This document shows positions 25,063 through 63,228 of a stretch of 64,000 nt of DNA, in pieces; the stretch's first letter is position 1, and each line of letters opens with the position of its first letter. The stretch covers positions 146,909 to 210,908 of the forward strand of contig JABANP010000046.1 of assembly GCA_013115135.1 (NCBI GenBank), written 5' to 3'. The stretch is from Perkinsus olseni. Lineage: Eukaryota; Perkinsozoa; Perkinsida; Perkinsidae. Position numbers and translations under genes: made by a program. The notes beneath the pieces were generated by a model, which made no database searches, was not told the origin of the DNA, and saw only the letters and a list, made by a program, of their open reading frames with translations.

Positions 25063-26649
25063 ATGGTCACAGTTGTTTTGGAGAGTTTTATGAAAGAGCC
25101 TTTATTCCGGTTACTGCCGCTCCTGCTCTTGACTGCACTTCTATGCCCGGTTACCCAAGGCAAGGGTTTCTTCCCGCCGGAGAACGGCAAGGTGATAGAG
25201 ATCGATGGGGATCTGCTAGGGAATCTTACGGCCCGGGGAGAGTCGGACGACACTCGAATTGTCCTCTTCTACGCCTCTTGGTGCGGCCACTGTGCTAACT
25301 TCGCGTCGGAGTACGAGATGGTGGCTGAGGTCTTCTCGAGTGTTCCCTCACTGTCCCTGTTCGCTATCGACTGCAATAAGTATCGCGAGGCATGCAGGTC
25401 GGCGGGCGTGGACAGATACCCGACGTTGGTGGGCTATAGGAAGGGCGAGAAGACCGGTGAGAACTGGGACCGGCAAATTCGGGCTGCTAACTACGTTAAT
25501 GAACAGCTCCCTGTAGAGTTGCAACTGTCCGACGTACCGACGATTGAGCATCTCAGAGGACCGTCCATGAAGATGAAAGGAAGTGAGGGGATCGAAGGGT
25601 CGGATACTGCTAGCGATCGAGTCTACGATGGTGTGCTCGCGTTCGCCAATCTGATGGCTACCGCGGTATTCCCAGCTGGGGTGGATTCCTTGGAGGGGTC
25701 CCGTCTCGATACCCTGAAGTACGTCGTGTTGCCGACGGTAGCCACTTTGCATCCGGACGAAGGGTTTCGGGGGGAAGTAGCTGATCTTCAGGCTAGTTTA
25801 CGGAACGTGTACTCGCTCGACTCGAGAGCAATGGTTGGATCTGCTGGCCGAGAAGCCTTTCCTTGGAGGGGAGATAACTCTAGCAACGGCGTTGTCGCCT
25901 GATGACCACTGGGCACTCTGTGGACAACTCAGTTGTGGCCTTTGGCAGTTTCTCCATCATCTAACTCTAGGCGTAGATCGGCCGTATAATGGTCAACAGG
26001 AGAGTGACCTGCTGGTTGATCATACTGGATTGGCGGCTATGAGCGGAATAAGGACGATACTCTCGCAGTACTTCGCATGCGAGGAATGTACGCGGCATTT
26101 CATCGAGGACTACGATAAGTGCCTTTACGGTCGGTGTGTGGGCGGGGATGCCCCGTCGAGGGAGGAGACTGTGATGTGGTTGTGGAGGTTCCACAACGCG
26201 GTGAATTCTCGAGTGTTTGCTAGTCAGAGGCCGGGGGAGAACTCTAGGGCAACTGAATGGCCGTCAGCCTCTCAATGCTCGGCATGTGTATCGACAGCGA
26301 CAGGCGAGTACTCTGAGAAGGTCGTCTATCATTGGATCGTGCAGACCTATCTCGGGGATATGCTCAAGGATGAGACCCTCTACACAGTGCCGTCACCAGT
26401 AAGTACAGAATCGTCTCACGTGTGCTTTGTACAGTGTCTCGCCCGTTCCGTGAGGACACCGTCTTTTGGATGGTCGGGGAGTCGACTCGTTAGCGATAGT
26501 CTCGATGGGCTCTCTTTTTCCTTCAGCTCCGGTCCATCATGCTGTTGCTGCTATCCTTGATTGGTATTGGTGGGCTGGTCCTCTACCAACTACACCAGAA
26601 GCAGATGACATACAACGATCGCCTCGGTAACAGACACCTCAACGAGTAG
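25063..26649 (+). CDS. QSOX: Quiescin-type sulfhydryl oxidase (thioredoxin + Erv/ALR)
   Basis: Start at 25063 gives a signal peptide (LFRLLPLLLLTALLCPVTQG). The thioredoxin domain follows with active site WCGHC in FYASWCGHCANF, and RYPTLVGYRKG. The second half is an Erv/ALR FAD domain: LCGQLSCGLWQFLHHLTLG, the redox pair CEEC in YFACEECTRHF, and FHNAVNSRVF for FAD binding; a third CSAC pair follows. An intron at 26399-26526 leads to a final exon with a transmembrane anchor (MLLLLSLIGIGGLVLYQ) and stop at 26647. QSOX enzymes insert disulfides into secretory proteins using oxygen. The two domains are in different frames: near 25819-25825 one base must be skipped to pass from SLRNVYSLD to REQWLDLLAEK. 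Confidence 0.88.
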
Positions 26650-26703: not shown

Positions 26704-26715
26704 GCTTCGCTCCGC
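26704..26715 (-). repeat. Motif B copy 5 (between QSOX and EXO1)
   Basis: The minus strand reads GCGGAGCGAAGC, 55 nt after the QSOX stop and inverted relative to both flanking genes. Confidence 0.6.
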
Positions 26716-32938: not shown

Positions 32939-35900
32939 TCAAAGCTTCGCAGCGTGGATGAGCGTCTCACAGTCAACTTCCCATAGCAAGCTATGGCCAA
33001 CATCAGGCAGAATGACCCGATCGCTTTCACTCGCCAGGGACACTTTCATGTTGGAATATTTACTATCCAGAGCACCCGCGATGAATCGGTCCACCGGAAC
33101 TTCCGAACAATCAACACTCCAAGCCTGGCTCATCGCCAACATCGACTTGGCCCAGCCAGACGGGTTGGCGTCGCCAACTCGCGACGGTAACCACTGGCCG
33201 AAGAACTCCTCAGGTCTTCGGGTTGGCAAGTCGGCAAATACCGAGCCGGAGCCGTACCACTTAGTGAGAAAGAGGCCGAGATCCAAGTTAGGGGACTCTA
33301 ATTTCTCCGCCCATGCGCAGTCACTCCGCCAGCGCCTCTCCCTTATGGCCGGGCCTCCAACGGCTGTGCTGGCAGCGATGACGATAAGCCGAGTGATGTC
33401 ACCGGGGGCGCGCCTCGCCCATTCTAGAGCTACTCGGCCACCTTGGGAATAGCCACATACTGTCACTGGTTTATTGTTAAACAGGTCTTTGACCAGACCA
33501 CGCAGGTTGGCGATGGTCGCCGACATGCCGTAGTCGAAGAGAGTGCTGCCCTCGGACGCTTGCGAGCTGCCGTGGCCCGGAAGGCTGATCGAGACAATGT
33601 CGTACTTGGCGGTGAGCTCCTCACAGGCCAGCCAGTCGGAGTAAGATTTGGCGCTTCCCATCCACCCATGCAACAGAACAAGGGGGGCCTTACCAGGACT
33701 ACCGCCTCGGATGAAACTGACGAGAAAAAGAGACCTTTCGAGCGGCTGAGGCATACTGTAGCCGCTTGCCTTAGCTTGACGCCTGGGTGAAGGCGGAGGC
33801 TCTCTTCGACCACCTCGCCGACTGCCGCTGTGATCCGACGCCGAAGGGCAACGTCTTCATCCTGGCTCGTCTTGGGCATCTGAGCACCAGCACAGTTGAG
33901 CCATCGTTGACGACTGCTGGAGATCCAGAAATCAAGACTATGGTGGACAGGGGAGGAATCTTCTCTCCACAACCGATATGAAGGTGGAATGCCCGTATCA
34001 GCTCCTTCACTCACAATCTCAGTCAATCCACTGTGATGGAGGCTTTCAACCATCCCCGCCAAATCATCGACCTTCTTGCTTCCCCCTAGGCCCAGCATCT
34101 TAGCCGCTCCCGCAAAGGCCACTTGGGCGTTGGGAGTCCGGAAATTCTCGTTGTAGGCGACCTCGTCCGAATACTTCCCGATGGGCACAAACTTGAACAT
34201 GCTGCCACCGTTGTTGTTGCACACCACGATCTTAACGGGAGGAATCTTCACATCACCGACGAAGCCACCACCGTTTAGGTAGTTGGCCAACCTGAGGGAG
34301 CGATAGACTCAGTGCGAGGGCTTCGTCCGGGGGACCGTCTACTGGACGAGCGAGTTGAGGTCGTGGATAGCGGCTACGTCTCCGATGAGAAGGTTTGTCG
34401 CACGACCCAGGCCCACTGCGTATCCAACTGCCGTGCCTGCAAAGAACGAATGAGGTCGACCCGGCTCACACTGAAGGATATGCGAGGGTGTCTACAGACG
34501 ACCCATAAGCTGTCAAATTACTCCTCATCAGGGGAAGCTATGACAACAGTGAAGTTCCGGAAAAGTGGTATTGTAAATAAGATATCATGCCAGTAGTATT
34601 GGGAGACCTCTCTGCTGTTGGCAGAGTCCGAACGTCTACGCCGGTCAGCGTGGCGGCGGAAGCTGGGTTTCCACGACTGAACAGTCCATGTGTGAGCACG
34701 CTAACTAATCTTCATTTTCGTTATGAATCTCCGACAGCCGGCTTCCCCCCGCTCACTTATCGTCCCATCGATTCCACTGACACCTCGACTACAAGACACT
34801 CGCGGGAGGTGAACTCCAAGGGGGCACTGAGGATGATCATCATCATCAAGCGAGGCTTATCGTGGAGCAAACTGTCGTGCCGTTCGGGTGTATCAGGTGG
34901 TGACACAAGACCCAACACACAAGAGCCCAAGTGTGCCAATCCATGTACCCGAGCACAGCGTAGCGAAGCGCATCAAGAACAAGCCCGTTGCAAGCCACGG
35001 CTCCATCCAGAATACAGGATGTGCGTCGTTCACTTACGAAATTGTCGAAGTTGCGGCAGCTCATGCTGCTACTTATGACCATACCCTCCCTCCTATTCGA
35101 TGCAAAGTTGGCCAAAGACCGAGTGATGTTCGGCTCAGTACCTACGCCCAACCAGTGAGAATAGCGATGATCGTTCTAGTGCAACTGGATGGCTTCTTAG
35201 GAGACACTCCGTGACCCATGCAGCAGGCGAGGTACGGTATCAATAAACGACGCACCGACTGCTCCCTCGGGACCTACACTCCTCCCCAAGCTCAGCCTGT
35301 ACTCTCTTCTCCGCCCTACTGCTGATAGCATAGATACGATCCCTCAGCGAGCGATTGGTCCTCAGTACCTGCGCAGACTACACGGTGACGGGCGTGAATA
35401 GAGGAGGCACTGCGGCTCGTACAGCTGGCTCCAGAGTGAGGTCATCGACCATGCGGGCGAACTCAGCGCAGGTCGCATCGACTACAATAGTGCCTGACAA
35501 CGTCACCCATCCAGTGCGGAAGCAGGGGACTCGGCCCCACTCCCCATCAGCGAGCTCCCGGGAGTGAACGACCAAGCATAGTAGTAGCCGTGAAATGGAA
35601 TTTAAGTTACCGATACCAACTTTTTCGGAATTTCCAGCTCATGAAGGGCGACCTAGACCGCTGCCTACCGTTCCAGTCAACATCATGTCTCCGAGGCACG
35701 TCCATGACTCTGATGTGCTCCTTGACCTGCCACAGGTGGACAACTCTCCTGCAGCCTCAAGGTACCCCACTCGACTACCGGTCCCATCTTAGACGACATC
35801 CAAGCCTGCACTTGTTTCGAGATCAGAGCCCCTCCTAGCCGTATGACTGTGGGGCGACTGAGCTGCAGCATGTCCAACACGGCTTGGGAGGACAGACAGA

Positions 35901-38900
35901 GGCTTGGCAGACACTCCCGACGGCAGCCTGAAGGAAAATGCTACTGTACATTGCCACACCAAGAGTCATGGCTAACTAATGTCGAAACCACATGTTTGAT
36001 GATCCTTACGGAGGACCTCTACTGACTATAGGGCTACGCCATCACTTCTCCGATCTATTCCGCTTGGACCGGTATTAGTGGACAATTAGAACGTCACTCT
36101 TTGATACGATACATAACATAACAATATACTTATGATAAGCATGCGTAAAACATACGAGGGCCCGCATGTACACTAGACCTAGGTCATCGATGATACTACT
36201 ATTATACACCTAATCCAAGTATACAGGCTCGACAGCCATAACGCGATCCCACCCTCCTCCACCAGTGACTGATCATCCCAAGACATCCTCGAGACTCACC
36301 ACTAACGGCATCAGCCAAGACAAGGCACTGGAGCTCCTCGGCCATAGCATCAACAGCAGCAGCATCCATAGGGGAGGACAGTGCGCCCACTACCAACACC
36401 ACTGTACCCGAACCTGACCAGTCACAGTGCCATGCTGCCCGAGGGCGGGGACACTCACTGATCAACTCCCTCACACTATCGTCTTCAATGGCCCTCCTAG
36501 CCGGCCTAGCAACCCTGGTCAGAGGCTCCGCTGAGCGGAGTTGCCAGCGGGTGAATCGGGAATCTTCCGGTACACGGAAGGCGCTGACCTCGCCATACTG
36601 CCCTCCTCGAACCTGCACCCAAACTCAGCCCACACCTTCCAATCGATCTACCTACCGCCCCTCCTTCCGGTGCAAGATTCTCTCGGAACTGCATGTTCAA
36701 GTGGACCTAAGCCCGGTACGTTCCACGACGGATCCCTGGTCAGCAGCCAGACTCACCACGCCGCTCTGCTGCAGACACTCGCCCACTGCGTAGTCGACGT
36801 CACTCAGGAGCGATCGTATTGGGGCCGACTCGCAAGGGGGAGCTACATCACGGGTCCACAACGCGTAGGGCTTGAAGATATCTGTCTGATTCATCGTCTG
36901 ATTGCTCCTAGAAGATAACAGAACCGTCACGCGCCACGAAATTCCTCTCCACGCATACCCTGTATCTCGCAGTTCTGACGGTCTGTCAGCCGTCAGCAGC
37001 AGCATTGGCACTCGGGACTCGTGAGCTTCCGTCACCGCCGGTAGGAGATTCGCCACAGCCGACCCTGAAGGAAGTCAACTCCATCGTGGATGCAATAGCG
37101 CGCGCCCTACCGCTGGTCACGATGACCGGTGCTGGCAGCCCAGTCGCCTTAGCGTAACCCAAAGCATAGAAGGCTGCGCCACGTTCATCCGTATGGACCT
37201 GCAAAAGGTGAAACAGAAAATGCTTCGCTCCGCTAAGGCCCCGTAGAGAGCCTAACGTACAACGTGCGTGGCCTGAGGGTGTTGTGTAACGGCTATGGTG
37301 AGCGGCGTCGATCGGCTCCCCGGACACACGACCTGTGGATCGAGGCCAACCTCGTGGATGCGTGAAGATTCCCGGAGAGAACTCACAAAGTGCTTTATAC
37401 CGAGGCGGACTAGCTCGTCGACGAAAACGGCACACCAGAAGGTGTTGAAATTAGGGAACTCCATTGGCTCCTTCAGAGCAGGCCTTACACCTATCACAAA
37501 ATACCAAATCACTTAACGCTTCGCTCCGCTATAAGCCGCCAGCCTACCATCGGACAGAGTGCCAACAAACTGGCGCATTTTGAGACGTATTTCGTTCCAC
37601 TCATCCTTGGGGACTGAGCCGTCGATAAGGCCAGCACCGGCCATCACGTGCACCTGAGTTCACCGGATAACACCACCATCGAAGCCTGGGACGATATGGT
37701 CGTCCACCATTCATAGTACTGACTAGCAGAGTGAGGACTACGAGCAGGATATCCTCTATTCAAGGAGCAGGAGCTCATTACCTTGGACCCGTGACGACGC
37801 TCGACCAGAGCACTTCTTAGAGACACCGCCAGCTCCCCTCCTCCAGATGACACCACCCCACACGGTGCGGCAAAGAATCCTGCACGCATGCACACATGAT
37901 ACTACCGCGCCCCCAACCCGAGCTGCTGACCTCGATCGAAAGGCTCTCTCGCCCTTATGAAAGTCATGCCGTCCTTTAGAGGCTTGCCACCCACTGCGGG
38001 CGTCGGGTGCAGATCTCGTACCAACCATTCCGACAACATCGTGACCATTGTGCAAGGGCATCTCGTCATCTGATCACAACCATACCATACATCCACCGCA
38101 TGTAGGAAAGGGTCCTCAAAGACAGCCTTTTCCCACGATAGGCGTCGACGTGCAATATGATGACCCTCACGATCTTCAGACTCCCACGGTCCATCTCACC
38201 TCGACAAAAGCGTAACACTGCCGAAAGCTCACCAATGCCGCGCGGAAAATTCATCGACGCGCTGTGAGTTAGCCTAGGCAATAAGGAAGCGCAGCTCTTC
38301 CCCAGCTGCTCACCATCCGTTGTGCTGAGGGTTTCCTGCTGGTCAGACAGGTCCACCGTCGCCTCCAGCATCTGCTTGCAGTGGACCAACTCCTTCAATC
38401 TCAGAAGGTTCACCCCACTCACATGCACCTGCCGGAACCAATATCCCCGATGAGGTTCCACTGTATGCGTTGAGAAATCGCAAGTGAGCAAGAGTTGATC
38501 AAGTATCCCCTATCGTTCACAGAGGACGCCCTCGTCCACCTCCTACATCGTGCGCTCTTCGAGTTAGGATTTCCCGGATATATTTAGTGACCGTACTGTG
38601 CTCAGTGGTCCGCTTGAGGTCAGCCTGAGAAGAAGATCCCAAGCATACGCACAGGAAAGATTCAAAACAGAGGAGGCAAGCCCGATGGTCCACTGCCACC
38701 AAGCCGTCAGAAAGGATACAGCCACTCACCCACCCTTACCTCATCATTGGTAGTGATCTCCGAGGGCTTCCACGTGCCAGCCACAGCCTCCGTCTCGATG
38801 TGACCGCCTCTTACACGGCACAGCCTCTCAGGAGTGATGCACACGAACGCACTCTCGCCACGAGGCGGCTCGATGTAGATAGTCTGTCAAGAGTAATGAA

Positions 38901-40692
38901 AGTTTAATATTAAGGAATTGCAAGATTGCAAGATTCCCCTCAAACGTGGAGCATCATAAGGCCCAGCGAGACCCCCTCCCCATTCGAACTCAGTGGAGAC
39001 GAGTAGTCCCGAAGAGCACCCCAAGTGCACACATGATAGAAAACTCGAAAATCAAAAAAGTCGAAAAATTTCCGACAAAATTTCTGATGGAGACATGATG
39101 ATGCTGCGGATAACGCAGTGACAGGCGTTACTATAATACCTTCGTCGTTGCGAAAAAAACCAGAAGATTGTGAAAAAGTGAAAAGATTCACGAGTTTCAG
39201 AGATTCCCGAGACGCCTTATTACATAGCGTTTGGTGTCTGGTACCGCCTCCACGACTGTGATGAGCCAATCAATGGGGTCCATCGGGCAGCCACTGTCTT
39301 TAAAACTCAGTGTGGAACGGAGGGAAATGACCTAGGGAGAAGCCGCTGAACAGGAGGTGGCGCGATAGGATAGATCAACCTACAACTTTGTCTAGAGAGC
39401 CATTGCGGAATTTAGAAATTGCAGTATTAACTGTATCAGTGTACCTGAGACCGGCAGATTGGCGTAGTGGAGTGAGCTGACGGCAGCGGCCCCGAGATTG
39501 CTAAATCATCCAGCCCGGGTTCAATACGCAGTCAAGACACCCTAGCACTACTACTCTTCAAGTGTGTTAGCCGGTATTATATCAGACGCTAGTGGAGGGC
39601 AGAGGGGCGGGGCCGATAGTGAGATCGCTGAGCCTGCATGGCCACTTGAAGGAGGCTATCGTGGAGAGAGCTGAAGGTGAAGGACCATGAGCATCCAGTA
39701 CATCCTCACACACCCGAATCAACGTGTATTGAGCTAGGCCAAAACAAGCTTTCAAAAAGGGCATTCGTAGAGCATTACCAGCGGCCCATAAAATCACTGG
39801 CAACCGGATAGTTAATCAAGCCATCGAGTACCGAGTACCACCAATCCCTCCTCTCCCTAATACTACCATCGTCAGCTTCCCCCATAACCAGCTTTCCCGT
39901 GCAACTGTCATATAGCAGATTCACCGAGACTGTGTAAGTGGTATCGGGGAATACACCCGATGATGCCACTTCGAGCCGAGGCAGTACCCAATACCTAGTC
40001 GATTACAATAGCCTTACCACGGACTCCCAAAGGCTAGATATTACTCTTGGGAGGGGTCGCGGAAGAAGTCTCGCCATTCTGCCCCGACTGCCCTGTCCTC
40101 ATCAAAACGACGCCCTGACGAAGGGGGACAGCGGTACAGATACTGTTAATTTCACCAAGTCCGATGAGATCAATACACGCCGCGTGACTGCGTTTGGATC
40201 GGACAACTGAGAGGCTCTGTGGAACGGACTGCTGCTTCTCACTTTACAGTCCTTCACTACAACTTTGGCGATAGAAAATCTGCATTTTATCGGGGGTTTT
40301 CGTCTCGAAGATTATCATGATACCCGTGGAAATTTCAGTTCGTCAGATGGTGGTCAGAAATGAAGGGAAAAGATACGCAGCCCACCAACCAACCTCCAAT
40401 GTAGTGAACTCTATCATCAGTGCCACTCAGTAGCATAGCGTCCAGAGAAGAGGCTACATGGGCCTGGCCCCACCCGCCTAGGGCAAACGAGCCGTCGCGC
40501 GCCACGAAAAGGGAACCTGGAGGGAAGGGAGAGTGGAGTAAGGGAAGGAGATGGACGCTTACGTGACTCCCTGCCGAAGCCTTGGAATCTTAGGAGCCTC
40601 AGGAGAAGCTTGGGCAGATGGTCGGCACTTTCCACAGGCAAAACAGTGGGGCACTCGATTCGAAGCACTCCTGAGAGGTATCTTACTATCAT
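32939..40692 (-). CDS. PHYLLO-like fused MenF-MenD-MenH (naphthoquinone synthesis)
   Basis: One minus-strand split gene carries three enzymes of menaquinone/phylloquinone synthesis in order. MenF, isochorismate synthase (40692 to about 37548): [37 protein letters not shown] with [30 protein letters not shown], and [16 protein letters not shown]. MenD, SEPHCHC synthase (37490 to about 33790): [49 protein letters not shown] with the conserved Glu, [54 protein letters not shown] and [17 protein letters not shown] for thiamine diphosphate. MenH (about 33754-32939): alpha/beta hydrolase with [10 protein letters not shown], nucleophile [10 protein letters not shown] and [10 protein letters not shown]. 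MenF and MenD join in frame across a 57-nt intron (37547-37491). The MenD to MenH step changes frame. MenC is not seen. Confidence 0.85.
36923..36942 (-). repeat. Motif A copy 6, in MenD intron 36958-36908
   Basis: The minus strand reads ATTTCGTGGCGCGTGACGGT inside a 51-nt intron. Removing it joins ELRDTG to [11 protein letters not shown], the conserved MenD reading. Confidence 0.85.
37222..37233 (-). repeat. Motif B copy 6, in MenD intron 37260-37199
   Basis: GCGGAGCGAAGC on the minus strand in a 62-nt intron; splicing joins ATHV to [10 protein letters not shown]. Confidence 0.8.
37518..37529 (-). repeat. Motif B copy 7, in MenF-MenD junction intron 37547-37491
   Basis: GCGGAGCGAAGC on the minus strand in the 57-nt intron that fuses the MenF and MenD reading frames (TLSDG to VRPALKEP). 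If unspliced, a TAA follows the motif. Confidence 0.8.
39453..39535 (+). repeat. tRNA-Ser-like remnant in MenF intron
   Basis: The plus strand has an A box (TGGCGTAGTGG), an anticodon-loop-like TTGCTAA (Ser GCT) and a weak B box (GGTTCAATACG) at the spacing of a long-variable-arm tRNA. Stems are mostly lost. It lies between MenF exons, antisense to the host gene. Confidence 0.4.
40491..40510 (-). repeat. Motif A copy 7, at a MenF intron/exon edge
   Basis: The minus strand reads TTTTCGTGGCGCGCGACGGC. Two 3' splice sites keep frame after the donor at 40562: one leaves the motif in the exon as FVARDG, the other (ending 40478, an 85-nt intron) puts it 14 nt before the splice site, as in the other copies. 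Confidence 0.6.
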
Positions 40693-41662: not shown

Positions 41663-44600
41663 ATGATGAACTCAGAGCCGAGTCCATATCCCGATCCGGA
41701 TAATACGGTAGGCCTTTAATCATCAGGTCCTTAGTTCGACCCTAGCATGTTGTATTTTTCATTCAGGAAGCTGCTGCGAAATGTCGTACTGGACAGTCGG
41801 CCCGCGGCGAGGGCCTGCCCTGGGCCCCCTCCGTTCGAACCCTCCACGATGTCTTCACTCACGCCGTCAAGAGGTAACTTATCGTTCCTATCAATAAGTC
41901 CATCACCGTCTCCAACCTCAGCCATCCGAACTCTAAATGCCAAGGGACCAGAGACCTTCTTCGTTTTGTGGACATGGGCCAGCCCTTGCCCGGCAAAGAG
42001 TTTGGCAAGACCACATGGCGTAGGTTCATCTCAACCCTTCTGATGAAACCTTTATTGGTAAGCTCAGGTACCTATCGTCAGGTCAACAGGCGGGTGTTGG
42101 CTATTGGAGCGGGCCTGCGTTCACTTGGCAACTGTCCGCAGCCTGATCATGTAACTGACGTGGACTCCTTGGTAAGTTGCGTGCTTACCCCATAGCAATC
42201 GCCATTGGCTTCTCCTCAGATTGGACCTATATCTCTCGTTATCTTTGAGGACACTTGTGCAGAGTGGATCACTGCCGCCCTCGGGGCGTGGTCACAGAGC
42301 ATGATCGTGACAACGATCTACGGTAGGCTTCCACGGTGGCATCTTCATGTGTGATGGGTATGGCGGAGTCCAACCTCAGGGACCCTGGGCCCGGACGCTG
42401 TCGCCCAAGCCTTCGTAGAGGGCCAAGGGACTACTCTTCTATGCAACAGGAAAAACGTAAGTTTTTCTCCCGCTTGTCGGCGCTTCTGTTGACGTCCATG
42501 GCTGTCCAGGTGGCTGGGGTCATCGCAGCTCGGGATACGATGCCATCTTTAAGGCATATCATCTACACTGACGAGGGTGTCGATAAGAAGGAAAGGATGA
42601 AGCCTTTGCAGTTGGCAGGTGGGCCTAGAAGTTCAAGGAAGTCATTCTGGAAGGGTAGCCTTAGATACTCACGGCATCGAGGTGATCAGATTTGAAGATC
42701 TCCTCCGTCGGGGTCAGAGCCTTGTGAAGGAGTATCCACCGGTGCCGCCTAAGAAGGACAGCATCGCCACCATCATGTACACGTCAGGTAGGCGACGGGC
42801 AGGTGATGGGTCGGCATGCTGCCACCACCATCACCTTCCCACAGGTACCACTGGCCACCCTAAAGGTGTTGTCATAAGACATCGCCACGCTGTCTTCGCC
42901 ATCCGATCGATACTGCCTCTCGTCCTGGATCGTCTCCCGTCTAACTTCACTCACGTCGCGTAAGGCATCAGCTTCCTTTCAGCCGCCGCATTTAGGGCAT
43001 CTCCTCCTAGGTACCTGCCGCTGGCCCATATCTTTGAGTTGGCAGTCCAGCTTGGCTGCCTTAGTACTGGTGCCAGTATCGGCTTCGCAGACCCCAGTAG
43101 GTGTCCTTGCTCCTGCCGCTCCTGTTGTCGACGTCCCCCACTTTCAGAGAGCCTCACAGCCACTCTCAGCAAGCCCCATGGCGCGTTGGAGGAGTTCAAA
43201 CCGCACATGTTCATCGGTGTCCCCAAGATTTATGATGTCATCATGAAGGGAGCTCTCGCCAAAATCGCAGCGGAGCCACGTAAGAATACTCCCCTGCTGG
43301 CGTTTTGCATCAGCTGTTGGTTCTTCAGCGACCAAGAGAGGCCTCATCAATGCCGCGTTTGAGTCCAAGGCCAAGGCGATCGAAAGTAATACCCGATGCA
43401 AGCGATGTGTCCCCCACGAGTTGTCCATCAGGTGGTAGATTCACTCCGATCTTTCGACCGTTTGGTATTCTCCAAGTTCAAGGCCCTCCTCGGCGGCCGC
43501 ATCAGGTGAGCTCTTCCAACCCATTTATGTGACTATAAGCTTAATCCACAGGATCTGCATATCTGGTGGAGGTCCGCTGTCGGGGGATGTCCAAAGATGG
43601 GTCAGAACAGCGTTCGGCTGCGACGTTATCCAAGGCTATGGTCTCACGGAGACCAACGCTGGTGCCACCGTTCAACTGTGAGACATTCCCGCGAGACGAC
43701 GGCGTGAGGTATTGCATCTCTTCAGGATTGGCGATCTCCGAACGGGTGTAGTGGGCCCGCCGATCCCCGGCGTCGAGATCAAACTTCGGTCGTGCCTCGA
43801 CGCCAAGGGGGAACCAGAGATCCTGGACCGTCATGGGAAGCCCTACCTTTCGAAGGACACTCGAGCAGCCAACGGCAAGCGCGTTCTCGGTAGCCGACGT
43901 ACTCGGCTGTTGCTGCTAGTACGTATTGGTTCGGGAGTGTAGGTCGTGGAGAGGTACTCATTCGTGGACCATGTGTAACCAGTGGATACTATAAGTTGCC
44001 CGAAAAGACTGAGGAAGCGTGAGCCATGCTGAAAAATGCCAAGCGGAGCGAAGCTCACTTCACACAGATTTAAGTCGAATGGGTGGTTCTACTCTGGTGA
44101 TGTGGGCCAGTTCCTGGCGGACGGCAGTCTACAGCTGATCGATCGGGTTAAGAACTTGGTCAAGTTGCGAGGGAGGCGAGTAAGTACCTTCTGCGGCTGC
44201 CCTGGGTACCCCGGTACGTTAAGCACAATGGCTTACTCTCGCGAGATAAATCGGTCGATTGGCCTTTTTAGCACAGCAAGTTATGGTGTAGTGTGCTATG
44301 GGCAGATACATCGCCCTCGAAAATATGGAACTAGTGTACGGCAGTTCGGCCTTTGTGGACGCCGTCAATGGTGGCATCATGTGCTACGGTGATGGTGAGT
44401 GATCGTGCTGATGATGAGGGCCCCGCCGTGCTTCCCATCGCAAGAGACGGTGTGGTCAGGTACTCTAGATAGACCGGTGGCGATGGTGCAAGTGAACAAG
44501 GACAACCTCGTGAACTGGGCTAAGTCCAACAACGTCCAATACAGTAGCTACGAAGAGCTGCTGAGGAAGCCTGAAGCCAACAAAGCGGTAAGGTCTCCGG

Positions 44601-49133: not shown

Positions 49134-49958
49134 TCAGGTAGAACGTTGCAAGTATCGCCTCTCGTTACCGATGTCGGTGTAGACGCCGTCGTCGGAGAAC
49201 CCCAAGGTTTTGAGATCAGTGCCTCTGATATTGAAACAGATTCCACATGTCTGATTGGCCACGTCGAGGAAGGCGTCGCGACTTCCACCAAAGTCGATCT
49301 GATAGGGTTCACCAGGCTCCTCCCTCGAGAGCTTGTAAGGCCCTAGGAAAGCTGTCCCGTCGCCAGTCCTTCCATTGGAGCAACTGATATTAAGTGATGC
49401 ATCCTGAGTGACGTCAAGTAGGAAAAAAGCTCTGAAGCACTCGAATGAGCCGAATGAGCCGAAAAAGGAGGTGCGGTAAGAGCCCTCCCTGAGAGGCAGG
49501 GCATACCGAGTGAGCTCCACCTTCTCTCCCTGGAACTGGATCGTACCAGAGTCAGGGGAGTTGACCGTAAAGTGTCCAAGGTCACCCTCAACGAAGTTCA
49601 GGGAGGGGCAGGCAGCCTTGGAGCCATCGTAAAGGCGGTCTAATCCCGGAGGCGGGTCGGTACTGCTGAGATACCCGGTAATATCGATATAAAAGTTGAT
49701 GAAGGTCGGTGGAAACTTACTGACAGAAGGGAACTTGAAGGGGCCATCCTCGAATGCCTTCTGAGGACACTCTATGCCGTAGGTCATCTTCCCGTCTCTG
49801 GTTATGTTGTAAGTCAACTGCAGACCAGAGCCTGGGTCCACATAGACATAGGAGCCAGGGTTGGGCATGTAGCCATAGAAAGGGTAATCTCTATCCAACG
49901 GGTCCACCTGGGCACTGCAGACCGATAGAACCGTAGCCGAAAAGAGAAGGGCGATCAT
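49134..49958 (-). CDS. Secreted protein, paralogue of 54577-53789
   Basis: A single exon. The start at 49958 was chosen because it gives a clean signal peptide (MIALLFSATVLSVCSAQ) aligned with that of the paralogue; the open frame runs 57 codons further upstream. The mature protein is about 255 residues with conserved blocks shared with the paralogue: YPFYGYMPNPGSYVYVDPGS, GLQLTYNIT, SGTIQFQGEKVELTRYALPL, SCSNGRTGDGTAFLGPYKLS and paired cysteines. It is probably an extracellular or surface protein of a lineage-specific family; no known domain was recognised and its function is unknown. Confidence 0.75.
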   Translation of the reverse strand: MIALLFSATVLSVCSAQVDPLDRDYPFYGYMPNPGSYVYVDPGSGLQLTYNITRDGKMTYGIECPQKAFEDGPFKFPSVSKFPPTFINFYIDITGYLSSTDPPPGLDRLYDGSKAACPSLNFVEGDLGHFTVNSPDSGTIQFQGEKVELTRYALPLREGSYRTSFFGSFGSFECFRAFFLLDVTQDASLNISCSNGRTGDGTAFLGPYKLSREEPGEPYQIDFGGSRDAFLDVANQTCGICFNIRGTDLKTLGFSDDGVYTDIGNERRYLQRST

Positions 49959-50129
49959 GGCACAGTCGGTAGAGGTAACGCTGAGCCGAGAGGTAATGTA
50001 GAGCGTGTTGATGTCCCGCCTGCACGCAAGCACATCGGAGATGGAGCTGCTGCTGCTGCCTCCACGAATTCCGCAGAGTTGAGTTTGAAAGGCTGCCTCG
50101 AGAAGGGCAGGGCTCATCCGGGTATCCAA

Positions 50130-53788: not shown

Positions 53789-54577
53789 TCAGGTTAACCT
53801 GTCCAAGTAAGACCTCTTCTTCGCAATCTCTGTGTAGATCCCACCGTCGTAGAAACTCAAGGTTTCGACGTCTGTGTCGCCCATCTTGAAGCAGAGCCCA
53901 CATGTCTCACTCGCCCCCGCAAGGAAGGCGAGGCGACCTCCTCCGAAGTCGATATCGTAGAGCTTTCCGGGCCTCTCCTGGGACACCTTGTACGGGCCAA
54001 AGACAGCTGTCTTGTCACCAGTTCTCCCATTAGTGCAACTGATTTCCAGTGACCCTGCTCGAGTGACGTAGAAAAGGAAGTGGGATCCGCTGCACTCTCC
54101 CAACCCGCGTGGGCCGCTGCGGTAAGTACCCTCCCTGAGAGGTAACGCATACCGAGTGAGGTTCACCCTCTCTCCCTGGAACTGGATCGTACCAGAGTCA
54201 CGATCCGGGGAGTTGAAGCTGAATTCTTCAAGATCGCCCTCAGCGAAATCCAGGGAGGGGCAGGCAGTCCTCGAGCCATTATAGAGCACATCGATCGAGT
54301 CTATGTCGATAACAAAGTTGATGAAGTCTGGCGGCACCTTACTGATACAAGGGAAGCGGAAGGGGCCGGCCTTGAAGCTCTGTTGGCACTTTATGCCGTA
54401 CATCATGTTTCCATTCTCCGTGAGATTATAGGTCAACTGCAACCCAGAATCGACATCTTCATACACAAAGGAGCCAGGGTTGGGGTTGTGGCCGTAGAAG
54501 GGGAAGACTCTGTCCTTGGGGTCTACTTGGGCGTTGCAGAAGGCTAAAACCGTAGCCGTGAGGAGAGTCGCCAGCAT
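53789..54577 (-). CDS. Secreted protein, paralogue of 49958-49134
   Basis: A single exon of 262 codons starting with a signal peptide (MLATLLTATVLAFCNAQ). It shares blocks with its paralogue: FPFYGHNPNPGSFVYEDVDS, GLQLTYNLT, SGTIQFQGERVNLTRYALPL, SCTNGRTGDKTAVFGPYKVS and the cysteines CGLCFKMGDTD. It lacks the proline-rich insert of the 49-kb copy. Together with the copied 3' flank this points to duplication of a gene-plus-flank unit on both sides of glucosidase II beta. Function unknown. Confidence 0.75.
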   Translation of the reverse strand: MLATLLTATVLAFCNAQVDPKDRVFPFYGHNPNPGSFVYEDVDSGLQLTYNLTENGNMMYGIKCQQSFKAGPFRFPCISKVPPDFINFVIDIDSIDVLYNGSRTACPSLDFAEGDLEEFSFNSPDRDSGTIQFQGERVNLTRYALPLREGTYRSGPRGLGECSGSHFLFYVTRAGSLEISCTNGRTGDKTAVFGPYKVSQERPGKLYDIDFGGGRLAFLAGASETCGLCFKMGDTDVETLSFYDGGIYTEIAKKRSYLDRLT

Positions 54578-58392: not shown

Positions 58393-59216
58393 CTACGCTA
58401 CATTCTCTCCTCTCTTCCCCCACTCAGAGCCACGCGGAGGCATCTGAGTAGTAGAGGAAGAATAGGAGCCGCCCTGGCCATAATGGTCAGGACTAAAGAA
58501 GGTGGTCTGATGCCTGGTTCGTGCTGAACGTCGAGAACCAACTGGGCCAACCTGGCCACTCTGTTGAGCGTTGGCATCGTCGGTGACCACCGTCGCGGCC
58601 GGAACCGATCCGACCGGGGGGTTGCCTCCGTCTTGAGGCACGGCCGCAGGGGCTTGTGCAGGGGGTGCAGGGGAATGCACAGGCTGACTCTGCGGCGAAT
58701 CATGATCCTCCACGGGCTGCTCGGGGCTGTCTAAGTGGAGGCTTGGCGAGCTCGGGGGTGAGCGTCGTCGTACTCAGGCGCGGTAACTACTGAAATGTCG
58801 TCCAGGGCAGTGTAAGTCGATCCACGCGGACTTCCCAAAACACTCGTCACGGAGTGTTCGTCCTCACTCCCCTTGAACCTGAGCACAAGGAACGGAATTC
58901 TCAGCAACATTCTCACCCTCCTGAGTAAGCGGCTGGAGAGGCACTCTCCAGCGGAGGCTCCAAGGCCGGAGACCTCACAGCCTCAGGCTGCACCTCTGGC
59001 AGGTCAGCCTCTTCACTAGGAGAAGGGGGCCTCGGGACCTCCCTCCCCAGTATCATGTTGTTCGACTAACGGGGCGGCGTCGTACTCATCAAAAGCCTCG
59101 GGAGCGAACCCATAGCCACGGTTAACGTCAGCCACCGGGGCTTCCTGCCCGGGTGCTGGCGGTATCTCAGGCGCCGAAGACGGTGGCGGCAACGTCTCTC
59201 TCCCGGTCGTCCCCAA
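58393..59216 (-). CDS. Retroelement pol C-terminal tail, Pro-rich
   Basis: Pro/Ala/Glu-rich frames (59216-59016 and 58713-58393) follow the integrase. They include RRSARTRHQTTFFSPDHYG, like the basic tails that end many gypsy polyproteins. Stops and frame changes separate the pieces. No catalytic feature. Confidence 0.4.
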
Positions 59217-60300
59217 ACGGAAATTCGGGGATGTTCGGGGCCTCTCGCACAGGGGTTGGTCGTTGACGGGCGATACCGAGCTCGGCCGGGACGCACTCAG
59301 GCTGTAGTGAGTCGTTGATCACGTGGTCGACAGAAATGACTTTCTCCACCATGTCTGGCCAACGGCGTAACACCACAGTCTTCTCATTGGTGCCCGGGAC
59401 GAACTTCAGCACATACCAGTTCGGCTGCCAACGAGGCAGGAGTTTGTGGCCGGGGGTCGCTGTTCGGAAAATCCTTAGAAGTACTCGCTGGCCGATGTAG
59501 AATACTCGGCGTTGTTGATGGCCAGCTTCCGCTTGCTGCCGGTGGGCTGACGATCGGCTGACGACCCATTGGTCGACTATATCCGCCAGCCTGGCCTTGA
59601 CGAAGGATGCATGTTCGGCGTAACCTGTGGGGTCGAATAAAAACTCTGTGTACTGATCGAAAGAAGGCAGGAAGGAGCACCGCGATTCCCGATTGAACAT
59701 CAAGTAGAACGGGCTGTACCCCGTGCTGCTATGCACAGAGGTATTGTACGACCACAACAAAGGCCGCAACCACTGCTTCCAGCTTCCCGAAGACACATGA
59801 GTTCTTAACAGGCCTAAAATGGTAGCGTTGAACCTCTCCACGGCCCCATTGGCGCATGGATGATACACACTGGTTCTCGCTTTCGTTACACCTAACAATT
59901 GTAGTACTTCTAAAAATAACTGACTTTCAAAGGCCGGACCCTGATCCGAGAGCAGACGCTGCGGCGGACCAAAAATGGAGAACAAGTGCAGCAGACATCG
60001 GTTGCCTCCTCGGCCGACTCTCCCCGTACCGGGAAAGCATCGGCCCACTTCGTGAAATGGTCCACCACCACCAGCAGTTTGAGATGCCATCGGGCGCCGG
60101 GGCCACCGTGAGAAAGTCGACAGCCACTGTTCTCCATGGCGTGCCAATCGGCAAGGGCATCGCCGGGCCGACAGGAGGCCGATGACCCTTAGCAATCTGG
60201 CACTGCTGACAAGCCGCCACGTGCTCGGCAACGTCCTCTCGCCATCGTAGGCCAGTAACACAACCGCCGCAACTTCTCCAAATTCCGATCCCGTCCGAAG
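59167..60300 (-). pseudogene. Retroelement integrase region, frame-broken
   Basis: The zinc-binding HHCC region spans the end of the RT frame (FHEHDGHFGRDRNLEKLRRL) and the next frame (HVAACQQCQIAKGH), needing one base skipped near 60240. Core acids are present: VAVDFLTV, LLSDQGPAFES and NGAVERFNATI for the DDE triad. Two further frame changes are needed near 60100 (to LLVVVDHFTKWADAFPV) and near 60005 (to RCLLHLFSIFGPPQR). After that the frame is open to 59167. Integrase would insert the cDNA into the genome; this copy is unlikely to be active as read. Confidence 0.75.
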
Positions 60301-62411
60301 TGGCCGTCGTGCTCATGGAAGTGCTGCATGACTTCTTGCCGAACAGATGACGCTACGACCGGCACCCATCTCGCTTCATCCTCAGGCAGGAAGTGAGCCA
60401 GACGAACCAACACGTTATCGGCAATGTCCAGAACATTCCACAGCTTCTTATAAGGCCGCAACGGGGGAATCTTGAACTCTGTCCTGGCCAGCGGTTGGGG
60501 ATCTTGGCGTCGCTCCCTCACCTCCGCGATGATGGGATCATCATTCTGCTGCCGCACGATATCCTCCCTCGACCAATGCTCCGCAATGGACAACACGCAG
60601 GCCGGCCGGCAGCTCGCTGGCAGTCGAGGGAACGGCCATGGCACATCGTCATCGTCCCCAGAAACAGCGGCCGCAGCCGGGGCTGATGGCAAGTGCTCTA
60701 GGAACTCATCCGTCGGGGCCGTCCTTAACCTCGAGAGCGCGTCGGCAGCCTTGTTCACCTTTCCTTCCACGTATCGTACAGTGAAGGAATACTGGCTCAT
60801 AGCCAGCAACCAACGCTGTACCTTGGCCGAATTGGAGGTCGTGATCCATTGCAAGGGGCGGTGATCAGACAAAACAACTAGATCTAGCGGGTAACCTAAA
60901 AAGAACGTGCGGAAGTGATCCAACGCTTTGAAGATGGCGTAAGCCTCCTTCTCGTAGACAGGCCACCTCAGCTGGGCTCCGGAGAGGGCCTGGCTGTAGA
61001 AAGCCAGAGGCCTCCCTTGTTGCTCCAACACCGCACCTATGGCGTAGTCCGAGGCGTCCGTGACCAGTTGGAAGGGCTGCTCGAAGTCCGGGTAGGCCAA
61101 GGCCGGCAAGGCCGCAAGGCTAGACTTGAGATATAAGAAGGCCGCGTCGTGCTCCTCTCCCCACTCTATCCACGAGGCTGTTGTTCTTCTCCTTTTACAG
61201 GCGGACTCCAAGGCATACAAGGGCCGCACAACCGAAGAGAAGTGACTGACAAAATGCCGATAGTAACCAGCCAGGCCGATGAATGACCTAAGCTCGCTAG
61301 CAGTAGTGGGAACAGGCCATCGGAGCACCGCTTCAACCTTGGCAGCATCCGGGGTCATACCCTTCTCATTGAACACGTGTCCGAGGTAACCCACCTCCGA
61401 CCGAGCAATCTCGCACTTGTCACCCGCGATGGTCAAGTTGGCCTCCTCCAACAGGCGGAACACCTCTTCCAAATGCCGAAGGTGCTCCTCGTGACTACGA
61501 CTGAACACCAGGACGTCGTCGAGGTATACCCGCACGAAGGGGAGGTGTCCCAACACCATGTCCATCAACCTCTGAAAGGTGGCCGGGGCCGAAGCCAGGC
61601 CGAACGGCATACGGCACCACTCGTACAACGGGAACCCTGGGCCTGGGCAGAAGGCCGTCTTGTGCTGGTCCTCAGGCCGTACCGGCAGTTGCCAATAACC
61701 ACTCCTCAGATCCAGAGTCGAAAACACCTTGGCGTGACTGAGATGTTCCTGGACGTCGTCAGGCCGGGGGACAGGGTAGGCCTCAGTGTGACAGGCCTGG
61801 TTCAACTTACGATAATCGACACACATGCGCACCTTTCCGTTCTTTTTGGGAACATATACGCACGGGAACCGCCAGGCCGAGGTGGACCTCCTTATGACGC
61901 CAAGCTCCTCCATCTCATGGAGCTGGGCCTCGATGTCCTCCCGCCATTTATGGGGCACGGGACGGACTCGTTCCACCACCGGGGTGTCGTCGTGGGTGTT
62001 CACGCGATGTTGCACCTTATCACATTGTCCGGGCCGAAGAGAAAATAGCTGACCGAACTTCTCGCAAAGCGATTGGAAAGGCCGTAGCTCCGGCCTTCCC
62101 TTGTCGATATCAGGCAACTGCTTCTCCTCGGCGCGGAAGTCGGGGATGGCGAAACGAAGCGCACCCGCGATGTCGTCATCGTCTAGCTCGTTCATGTCAC
62201 ACCCCGGGGGAGGCCACTTCTCTGGCGCGGTCAGGACAACGCCCTTCGGCAACTGAGTCGGCGCAAACGACCGAATCTGCCCCTTACCAGGGACCTTCAG
62301 CCCTTGCCGGGCCAACTCTTCGTCGGTGAGGGGCTGCACGTGTGGCTGGGCTGCCATGGCATAGACGGAACGGACGGGATCATTCAGAACCATCTGGAAA
62401 TCATCAAGCAA
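60189..62411 (-). CDS. Retroelement reverse transcriptase-RNase H
   Basis: A 740-codon frame. RT motifs: FPCVYVPKKNGKVRMCVDYR, FSTLDLRSGYWQLPV, GLASAPATFQRLMD and the catalytic VRVYLDDVLVFS. The connection has LRSFIGLAGYYRHFV. RNase H has LVTDASDYAIGAVLEQQG, RPLAFYSQALSG, YEKEAYAIFKALDHF and LSDHRPLQW, with the expected D, E and D residues. It copies element RNA into DNA and degrades the template. The uninterrupted length suggests recent insertion or selection, at odds with the broken integrase part. Confidence 0.92.
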   Translation of the reverse strand: MLDDFQMVLNDPVRSVYAMAAQPHVQPLTDEELARQGLKVPGKGQIRSFAPTQLPKGVVLTAPEKWPPPGCDMNELDDDDIAGALRFAIPDFRAEEKQLPDIDKGRPELRPFQSLCEKFGQLFSLRPGQCDKVQHRVNTHDDTPVVERVRPVPHKWREDIEAQLHEMEELGVIRRSTSAWRFPCVYVPKKNGKVRMCVDYRKLNQACHTEAYPVPRPDDVQEHLSHAKVFSTLDLRSGYWQLPVRPEDQHKTAFCPGPGFPLYEWCRMPFGLASAPATFQRLMDMVLGHLPFVRVYLDDVLVFSRSHEEHLRHLEEVFRLLEEANLTIAGDKCEIARSEVGYLGHVFNEKGMTPDAAKVEAVLRWPVPTTASELRSFIGLAGYYRHFVSHFSSVVRPLYALESACKRRRTTASWIEWGEEHDAAFLYLKSSLAALPALAYPDFEQPFQLVTDASDYAIGAVLEQQGRPLAFYSQALSGAQLRWPVYEKEAYAIFKALDHFRTFFLGYPLDLVVLSDHRPLQWITTSNSAKVQRWLLAMSQYSFTVRYVEGKVNKAADALSRLRTAPTDEFLEHLPSAPAAAAVSGDDDDVPWPFPRLPASCRPACVLSIAEHWSREDIVRQQNDDPIIAEVRERRQDPQPLARTEFKIPPLRPYKKLWNVLDIADNVLVRLAHFLPEDEARWVPVVASSVRQEVMQHFHEHDGHFGRDRNLEKLRRLCYWPTMARGRCRARGGLSAVPDC

Positions 62412-62577: not shown

Positions 62578-63228
62578 TCAAGCCGTCCCCCACCAGTTGC
62601 CTTCCGGGGGCCCCTGGCCCTCATTAATTAATTGCCGACACTCCTCAGTTTGAGTAGAAGCGGCCGCCCTTTGCTTCGGCATCAGGCTACTCGGGCCGGA
62701 GGCAATGCTCGGGCCACGAGACACCTTCCCCGTCGGACTCCTCCCCTGCAGGGACGTCGTCTGGGTCTCGCCATACGGCAAAGTTAAACCATCCCCCACT
62801 CGCACTGTATCCATCTCCCATCTCAGCGCATTAGCTGAGCCCAAGTCGAACGCATATGGAGCAGCCGGTCCCGCACTTCGGGCCGTACTACTCCTCAACT
62901 CGATCGGGTTCTGCTCATAGAGCACGTTGAACCCGAAATGTCTTAAGAAATCATGACCTAGAATAATCGGGAAGGCCAACGAATCGCAAACGTACACAGA
63001 CATGGTACAACGAAGTCCCTTGGAGACACCCTGACGACGGGCCAAGTAAGAGGCCGTCGCCGCCTCCGCAGACTCATACACGAAGAAGTCAAGATTAACG
63101 GTGCCAACAATGGCAAATTCAGACTTATCCACAGTCAGTAGTTGACATCCATCCACGGGCTGCACAGTGAGACCTTCAGGCAGCTGAGACTGAGATACCA
63201 AGGTAGCACAGCAGCCAGTGTCTACCAA
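62578..63228 (-). CDS. Retroelement aspartic protease region
   Basis: The frame contains the retropepsin active site LVDTGCCATLVS (63228 side), a strand pattern IVGTVNLDFFV, and IILGHDFLRHFGFNVLYEQ, the second conserved part of retropepsins. A Ser/Pro-rich linker follows. It would cleave the gag-pol polyprotein. It is in a different frame from both gag and RT. Confidence 0.75.
   Translation of the reverse strand: MVDTGCCATLVSQSQLPEGLTVQPVDGCQLLTVDKSEFAIVGTVNLDFFVYESAEAATASYLARRQGVSKGLRCTMSVYVCDSLAFPIILGHDFLRHFGFNVLYEQNPIELRSSTARSAGPAAPYAFDLGSANALRWEMDTVRVGDGLTLPYGETQTTSLQGRSPTGKVSRGPSIASGPSSLMPKQRAAASTQTEECRQLINEGQGPPEGNWWGTA

What the first reader, a model, noticed from the sequence alone, without database searches (positions are those of the whole stretch)
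32939..40692. PHYLLO-like MenF-MenD-MenH fusion in a presumed non-photosynthetic alveolate
Seen directly: isochorismate synthase, SEPHCHC synthase and SHCHC-synthase-type hydrolase signatures follow each other on one strand, and MenF is joined to MenD in frame by a 57-nt intron (37547-37491) whose removal eliminates the only intervening TAA. Known: plants and some algae carry PHYLLO fusions of men genes for phylloquinone synthesis, usually with MenC between MenD and MenH. Inference: this lineage makes or made a naphthoquinone, perhaps inherited with a relict plastid, using a three-domain arrangement without MenC.
Basis: partly seen in the sequence, partly recalled or inferred. Interest (0 to 1): 0.92.

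Follow-up and report, generated by a model that had tools for sequence, protein, structure and literature searches.

The report
Vitamin K-type fused enzyme in Perkinsus
A single-celled shellfish parasite that does not photosynthesise carries a fused three-part enzyme for the first steps of vitamin K-type quinone synthesis, inherited from its algal ancestors, plus the missing fourth part as a separate gene, which makes it testable what such a quinone does in a cell without photosynthesis.

Summary
On the minus strand at 40692-32939 lies one gene, about 31 exons in the model, for MenF-MenD-MenH; the 57-nt intron at 37547-37491 is as described. The organism is Perkinsus olseni or a near-identical relative: an NCBI P. 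olseni protein aligns at 97% over 858 positions and is fused likewise. The gene is a PHYLLO. In a MenF-D-H tree it falls with dinoflagellate-type, Hematodinium and Euglena rows (100/100); union with green or diatom-type PHYLLO is rejected. Its order is that of dinoflagellates and diatoms (F-D-H-C), not of plants (F-D-C-H). MenC is not lost: it is a separate gene (two loci; ortholog in P. marinus) that falls among PHYLLO MenC domains, so it probably split off. All four enzymes to o-succinylbenzoate are thus encoded. MenE, MenB and a clear MenA were not found (soft absences), as reported for the middle steps in Euglena. A MenG/UbiE-type methyltransferase exists; COQ7 and COQ4 were not found, but UbiG/COQ3-type genes were. 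PHYLLO here and in Hematodinium (reported plastid-less) shows no obvious plastid leader. Best reading: an extraplastidial o-succinylbenzoate synthase feeding a non-photosynthetic naphthoquinone. Expression, activity and quinone are untested.

The parts
32939..40692 (-). whole PHYLLO-type gene (MenF-MenD-MenH), about 31 exons, 30 GT-AG introns of 35-372 nt (median 55.5) in the curated model
   Evidence: protein-to-genome dynamic programming, curated model, P. olseni proteins P0001/P0002
37548..40692 (-). MenF (isochorismate synthase) part, 14 exons; begins [16 protein letters not shown] with no N-terminal leader evident; exons between 39.86 and 39.44 kb are weakly supported
   Evidence: PF00425 9.1e-36; best solved relatives are isochorismate synthases, best E 5.9e-24; model
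38025..38035 (-). one-base frame offset inside MenF relative to the protein records of two other isolates; allele or assembly error not decided
37491..37547 (-). 57-nt phase-1 intron joining MenF to MenD in frame
   Evidence: junction identical in P0001 and P0002
33781..37490 (-). MenD (SEPHCHC synthase) part; TPP-binding and GDV-NNNGG region
   Evidence: PF02776 2.8e-26; PDB MenD 2x7j 1.5e-45 and 2jlc 4.3e-43 with P0001
33860..33920 (-). likely MenD C-terminal strand (..[12 protein letters not shown]) out of frame with the following helix ([13 protein letters not shown]); unexplained
   Evidence: three-frame translation; P0001 reads on in the helix frame here
33746..33780 (-). probable 35-nt intron joining MenD to MenH in frame (least certain joint)
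32939..33745 (-). MenH (SHCHC synthase, alpha/beta hydrolase) part, ends ..HAAKL-stop; AKL fits the PTS1 tripeptide pattern
   Evidence: PF00561 6.3e-16; PDB SHCHC synthase 4myd/4mxd about 1.3e-10, GYSQGG, Asp and GH positions aligned; AKL:

Best explanation
The gene encodes a PHYLLO of the myzozoan lineage whose MenC domain has moved to a separate gene. MenF makes isochorismate from chorismate, MenD adds the succinyl unit from 2-oxoglutarate, MenH removes pyruvate, and the stand-alone MenC dehydrates the product to o-succinylbenzoate. No plastid leader is evident on either protein, so this module probably works in the cytosol or, given the AKL end of MenH, in peroxisomes. o-Succinylbenzoate is then turned into a prenylated naphthoquinone by enzymes not recognised by homology (the MenE/MenB/MenA steps), and a MenG-type methyltransferase with a hydrophobic leader finishes it in the plastid or endomembranes, much as described for Euglena longa. 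Shown here: domain identity, conserved motifs, fusion in the gene model, MenC elsewhere, ancestry. Inferred: expression, activity, location, and that a quinone is the end product.
For: Domain matches; same fusion in the P. olseni record P0002, and MenF, MenD and MenH in one model in P0001. FDH tree of 35 rows x 992 columns: Perkinsus in a clade with Euglena, Hematodinium-type and dinoflagellate-type rows, 100/100. AU test rejects union with green rows (p 3.7e-17) and with diatom-type rows (p 3.5e-5). Separate MenC at two loci, best NCBIfam family menC 2.2e-23 (83 bits, under its cut-off of 130.55) and best PDB hit o-succinylbenzoate synthase 1.2e-13 with conserved motifs aligned; P. marinus ortholog 58% identical. 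MenC falls inside the PHYLLO MenC clade: 100/99 for all PHYLLO rows plus one unnamed ENA row, 93/89 for the part with dinoflagellates, Hematodinium and Euglena. dN/dS of the two MenC copies 0.30. UbiE/MenG gene over the TIGR01934 and NF001244 cut-offs, hydrophobic leader. E. longa lacks the same middle enzymes, yet OH-phylloquinone was detected there (passages).
Against: No MenE, MenB or clear MenA recognised: the route beyond o-succinylbenzoate is not shown. Two frame problems in the model. No RNA evidence for this gene was available. The MenC node is only 93/89, and the Perkinsus pair joins one long-branch unnamed row, P0127, at 97/95. No protein named P. marinus was among the 120 listed of 158 hits, though its MenC was.
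Confidence: 0.72

Rival explanations
1. The module is a remnant: PHYLLO is decaying after loss of photosynthesis, and nothing is made downstream.
For: Frame offset near 38.03 kb and the out-of-frame MenD strand; MenE, MenB and MenA not recognised.
Against: Exons otherwise open over 30 GT-AG introns, with closely matching proteins in two other isolates; the 38.03-kb offset is absent from those; conserved motifs kept in all four enzymes; MenC copies differ with dN/dS 0.30, and MenC is kept in P. marinus.
Confidence: 0.15
2. The module works, but its product is not a quinone: isochorismate or o-succinylbenzoate goes to another end, for example a salicylate-like or secreted metabolite.
For: No recognisable MenE/MenB/MenA.
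Against: All four steps to o-succinylbenzoate are kept, which an isochorismate-only use would not need; a MenG/UbiE-type methyltransferase is present; E. longa shows the same gap with a detected OH-phylloquinone.
Confidence: 0.1
3. The contig is algal contamination.
For: None found.
Against: P. olseni protein records from two other isolates match at 84% and 97%; short introns (17 of 30 are 35-62 nt) run through the gene; the 210.9-kb contig also carries other genes; the tree places the gene on its own branch.
Confidence: 0.02
4. MenH is a separate gene starting at ATG 33754, and only MenF-MenD are fused.
For: An ATG opens the MenH frame at 33754 and the MenD-MenH joint is the least certain splice.
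Against: No stop closes the MenD frame before MenH; under 60 nt lie between the domains; P0002 is fused there, as are the 77 F-D-H-C proteins.
Confidence: 0.1

Closest known systems
Dinoflagellate PHYLLO (Durusdinium trenchii P0003; Symbiodinium record named PHYLLO P0184)
   Same: F-D-H order, close clade in the tree, no obvious N-terminal leader in the dinoflagellate-type rows that were looked at
   Different: MenC is fused after MenH there; separate gene in Perkinsus
Hematodinium-type PHYLLO (P0176, TSA project GEMP01)
   Same: non-photosynthetic parasitic relative, F-D-H order, protein starts directly at MenF
   Different: MenC still fused (F-D-H-C); the organism is reported to lack a plastid
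Euglena PHYLLO (P0186, named by recall; E. longa, PMC7580956)
   Same: same clade; apparently cytosolic by report; middle enzymes of the pathway missing; photosynthesis lost in E. longa
   Different: MenC fused; MenA and MenG reported, MenA placed in the plastid; OH-phylloquinone measured
Diatom PHYLLO (menFDHC-duf, PMC2412073)
   Same: F-D-H order
   Different: carries MenC and a further domain; rows P0264 and, by eye, P0271 begin with a signal-peptide-like stretch; separate clade
Green plant and algal PHYLLO (menFDCH)
   Same: same enzymes
   Different: MenC between MenD and MenH; described as plastid protein in plants (PMC6189191 passages); union with Perkinsus rejected

Membership tests
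PHYLLO | MenF, MenD and MenH domains present in this order | tested here: met
PHYLLO | domains fused in one open protein | tested here: inconclusive
   fused in the gene model and in P0002, but two frame problems and no cDNA
PHYLLO | MenC domain in the same protein | tested here: not met
   MenH ends at a stop at 32939; MenC lies on other contigs; P0001 also ends in AKL
PHYLLO | branches inside the PHYLLO clade | tested here: met
   MenC
PHYLLO | plastid-targeted (plants, diatoms) | tested here: inconclusive
   no leader evident in the model or in 11 dinoflagellate-type rows, by a crude hydrophobicity scan that does not cleanly separate known cases
PHYLLO | converts chorismate to o-succinylbenzoate | not testable with these tools
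   conserved motifs aligned with solved enzymes
complete menaquinone/phylloquinone pathway | MenE, MenB, MenA, MenG present | tested here: inconclusive
   MenG-type found. MenB: 6 of 7 crotonase-family contigs tested score best as other hydratases or hydrolases. MenE: best hit is an amino-acid adenylation domain; 11 of 21 candidates were scored. UbiA-family genes not clearly MenA. Exon-wise six-frame search can miss divergent genes

The most novel reading that the evidence does not exclude
In the dinoflagellate-Perkinsus lineage, which is reported to have lost the canonical ubiquinone pathway (PMC7789003), an extraplastidial PHYLLO supplies a naphthoquinone that has taken over ubiquinone's place as respiratory or redox quinone. 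This would explain why PHYLLO survives the loss of photosynthesis (Perkinsus) and of the whole plastid (Hematodinium). Against it: this genome has UbiG/COQ3-type methyltransferase genes over their cut-off, and the MenG-type gene has a leader that does not look mitochondrial.
Probability: 0.18. Interest if true: 0.93.

Novelty: new variant of a known kind. Interest (0 to 1): 0.7.

Why it matters
Phylloquinone synthesis is normally explained by photosystem I. A PHYLLO kept in a non-photosynthetic parasite, with its fourth domain split off yet conserved, and another kept in a lineage reported to lack a plastid, suggests that the product has a use outside photosynthesis. Together with the reported loss of canonical ubiquinone synthesis in the same lineage, this raises a direct question that lipid mass spectrometry can answer: which quinone do these mitochondria and relict plastids use? 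Animals lack these enzymes (PMC6189191 passage), so the set is also absent from the hosts.

Tried and rejected
Rejected: contamination; MenC lost; green or diatom-type origin (these groups were named after the tree was seen, which weakens an AU p-value somewhat). The MenB hit at C945 first looked like MenB but scores best as enoyl-CoA hydratase (171.8 bits, against 90.4 for menB). Of the other crotonase contigs, C156, C899, C66, C244 and C49 also score best as other hydratases or, for C49, 3-hydroxyisobutyryl-CoA hydrolase; C2 was not run but is near-identical to C899 by eye. The MenE hit at C296 scores best as an amino-acid adenylation domain. UbiA fragments at C19 and C903 matched MenA models only weakly, 5e-5 and 1.8e-4; the longer piece from C903 matches other prenyltransferase models better; a search with the plant-type MenA model gave only E 0.028-0.0995. 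PF01209 matched 9 places: C218 is UbiE/MenG; two tested of the C10/C903 set score best as UbiG, over its cut-off; C445 matches UbiE models under their cut-offs; C46 was not tested. The peroxin search PF04757 had no working control and says nothing. COQ7 rang in 3 and COQ4 in 1 of 14 prokaryotic control genomes; there is no eukaryotic control. PF16582 found nothing in the genome although it scores in the spliced proteins: exon-wise search is insensitive for intron-rich genes, so absences are soft. The first DP model had a 260-nt intron limit and wrong joints; replaced. The translation goes out of frame after the 38.03-kb offset. A clade of Perkinsus + dinoflagellates + Hematodinium without Euglena is not rejected (p 0.079), so the sister relation to Euglena (96/91) is not firm. 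Paper searches for prior reports: Perkinsus + phylloquinone, 2 papers (passages read of one, the other listing only); Perkinsus + menaquinone, 3 (listing only); Perkinsus + isochorismate, none; dinoflagellate + ubiquinone biosynthesis + Perkinsus, 1 (listing only). The library holds open-licence PMC papers only; no supplements were read. No structure prediction was run.
Full report
What is there. The window is G000:C401:146909-210908 of a 61.5-Mb, 968-contig assembly. Minus-strand reading frames at 40.7-32.9 kb hold conserved pieces of isochorismate synthase, SEPHCHC synthase and an alpha/beta hydrolase. A protein-to-genome alignment and a curated model give 31 exons and 30 GT-AG introns (35-372 nt, median 55.5), starting at the ATG at 40692 and ending at the stop at 32939.

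Whose gene. The best database hits are two NCBI 'hypothetical' proteins of Perkinsus olseni. P0002 aligns over 858 positions at 97.1% with 9 mismatches and 16 gaps; P0001 aligns over 1157 positions at 84.0% with 88 mismatches and 97 gaps, partly because its model differs in places. P0001 contains all three parts and P0002 reaches into MenH. The automatic model P0001 has a retroelement-like stretch in place of the MenF N-terminus and skips the MenH start (by eye). A search of the own genome with P0002 finds this copy only, apart from weak hits on C46 and C349 at 29% identity.

Enzyme identity. MenD part: best solved relatives are MenD enzymes (1.5e-45). MenF part: best are isochorismate synthases (5.9e-24); the LDKVV and ETEAVAGT stretches align with them. 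MenH part: solved SHCHC synthases align at about 1.3e-10, including GYSQGG, the Asp and the GH positions; the very best hit, 2xmz, is named only as an alpha/beta hydrolase. Which residues are catalytic is recalled, not from a call.

Where MenC went. TIGR01927 rings at two loci, C135 and C478 (7e-22 and 8.7e-22), in stop-to-stop frames of 359 and 374 codons. With an upstream exon read by eye the C135 protein starts MPLRAGPS, with no leader. NCBIfam's four best families are o-succinylbenzoate synthases, all below their cut-offs. The solved enzyme aligns at 1.2e-13, with the KxK, DAN, EEP, DES and KP positions kept. P. marinus has an ortholog (58% identity). Between the two P. olseni copies dN/dS is 0.30, from 15 synonymous and 15 non-synonymous differences over 942 nt.

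Domain order. Among 126 proteins of 1000 aa or more in hand, including the window's own, 77 are F-D-H-C, 32 F-D-C-H, 5 F-D, 5 D-H-C, 4 F-D-H and 3 D-C-H. The four F-D-H are this gene, P0001, P0005 and P0185; the last two may be cut short, and P0185 sits inside an F-D-H-C clade. The set comes, each of which listed its best 120 hits (of 158 and 419), so it is not a random sample. Perkinsus is thus F-D-H-C minus C, and the arrangement without MenC is a fission, not a loss.

Ancestry. MenD tree of 56 rows and MenF-D-H tree of 35 of these rows x 992 columns (I dropped 10 bacterial-type MenD rows and 11 near-duplicate, partial or gappy rows): Perkinsus, the Euglena row, the two Hematodinium-type rows and the dinoflagellate-type rows form one clade, 100/100. 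In the MenD-only quick tree the same clade has 94. Perkinsus pairs with Euglena at 96/91, but both are long branches, and a clade of Perkinsus with dinoflagellates and Hematodinium alone is not rejected (p 0.079). Union with green rows (p 3.7e-17) or diatom-type rows (p 3.5e-5) is. 'Dinoflagellate' is my label for rows that cluster with Durusdinium P0003; most of them are unnamed. P0186 is called Euglena from its EG_transcript name, by recall. P0176 belongs to project GEMP01, which PMC6642578 gives for Hematodinium (passage); P0177, its neighbour in the tree, is unnamed. In the MenC tree (46 rows; 15 of the 38 hits other than P. marinus used as outgroup, L004 left out) the Perkinsus pair lies inside the PHYLLO MenC group (100/99), in the part with dinoflagellates, Hematodinium and Euglena (93/89), next to one long unnamed row, P0127 (97/95).

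Location. I printed the N-termini of 26 proteins. None of 11 dinoflagellate-type rows, nor P0176, exceeds a 12-residue hydrophobicity mean of 1.9 in the first 60 residues; two of the 11 may be N-terminally cut. Diatom P0264 reaches 2.7, P0181 and moss P0187 2.2, but diatom P0271 only 1.8 and P0208 1.1, so the scan does not cleanly separate leaders. On a 15-residue scale this gene gives 1.19, MenC 1.07, P0176 0.62, P0264 2.51 and the UbiE gene 2.88. PMC7580956 calls Euglena PHYLLO apparently cytosolic (passages). MenH here ends in AKL, in P0001 too. In PMC9244630 (table passage) the last 12 residues of an AKL protein of Guillardia went to peroxisomes while the full-length fusion stayed cytosolic. 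Whether Perkinsus has peroxisomes was not shown (one search had no working control).

Downstream. MenB: of seven contigs with crotonase-family exons, six were tested and score best as other hydratases or hydrolases. MenE: 11 of 21 candidates were scored; the best is an adenylation domain of NRPS type, the rest look like long-chain acyl-CoA ligases by eye. UbiA family: 9 places; those tested resemble bacterial 'prenyltransferase' models or weakly MenA, and a homogentisate-phytyltransferase-like pair lies on C190 and C333; none is clearly MenA or COQ2. UbiE/MenG: one gene on C218, hand-spliced, over the cut-offs of TIGR01934 (217 vs 158.35) and NF001244 (217.7 vs 216), with junctions that fit GT-AG and a hydrophobic start. 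Its best solved relative is mitochondrial COQ5, so MenG versus COQ5 is open. COQ7 and COQ4 gave no hit (controls rang in 3 and 1 of 14), which with the leader leans to MenG; but UbiG/COQ3-type methyltransferases do exist (two tested, 111.8 and 104.2 bits against a cut-off of 102.95), which is against a complete loss of ubiquinone-type enzymes. Exon-wise searches are insensitive (one search missed a domain that is present), so these absences are soft. [quoted passage not shown]

Mechanism. Chorismate to o-succinylbenzoate by MenF-D-H plus MenC is well supported by family knowledge. PMC7789003 says phenylalanine and tyrosine synthesis persists in Perkinsus, which implies chorismate. The rest to a quinone is inferred from the MenG-type gene and from the parallel with E. 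longa, where the same middle enzymes are missing and OH-phylloquinone was nevertheless measured.

Known or new. PHYLLO, its two domain orders, and its survival in a non-photosynthetic euglenid are known. Menaquinone and phylloquinone have been reported from Plasmodium falciparum; a 2019 review says no putative enzymes had been identified for its menaquinone, and the phylloquinone paper leaves synthesis versus uptake open (passages). I found no held paper on PHYLLO, menaquinone or isochorismate in Perkinsus, some of whose hits I saw as listing only; most subscription papers are not held. New here, as far as those searches go: PHYLLO in Perkinsus with MenC split off; the same family in Hematodinium, which PMC6733595 and PMC10624901 describe as lacking a plastid (passages); and the link to lost ubiquinone synthesis as a testable idea.

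Noticed in passing
window 37222-37233, 37518-37529, 26704-26715, 44043-44054 and five more: Motif GCGGAGCGAAGC occurs 9 times at up to 1 mismatch where 0.45 are expected; two copies lie inside introns of this gene. It may mark a repeated intron-borne element.
   Followed up: partly
window 33860-33920: The likely MenD last strand and the C-terminal helix are in different frames here and, judging from protein P0001, in another isolate too; I found no GT-AG intron that joins them.
   Followed up: partly
window 25063-26560, + strand: Thioredoxin (4.8e-15) followed by Erv1/Alr (9e-14) domains: a QSOX-like gene.
   Followed up: no
window 59167-62411, - strand: Reverse transcriptase, RNase H and integrase pieces of a Ty3/gypsy-type retroelement; a protease-like frame (by eye) lies at 62578-63228.
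   Followed up: no
window 49134-50129 and 53789-54577, - strand: Two related proteins, secreted-looking by eye and without Pfam match, probably a local paralog family.
   Followed up: no
L046 and L047 (C190, C333): Homogentisate-phytyltransferase-like UbiA genes (7.9e-10 for the C190 piece), hinting at tocopherol- or plastoquinone-type synthesis in this parasite.
   Followed up: partly
L021, L023, L024, L025 (C10) and L022 (C903): Four methyltransferase frames within 5.2 kb on C10 and one on C903; the two tested (L021, L022) score as UbiG over the cut-off and start hydrophobic by eye.
   Followed up: partly
L005 (C296): A 627-codon frame with an amino-acid adenylation (NRPS-type) domain.
   Followed up: no
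L003 and L004: MenC is present at two loci with 30 differences over 942 nt, either alleles or a duplication.
   Followed up: partly
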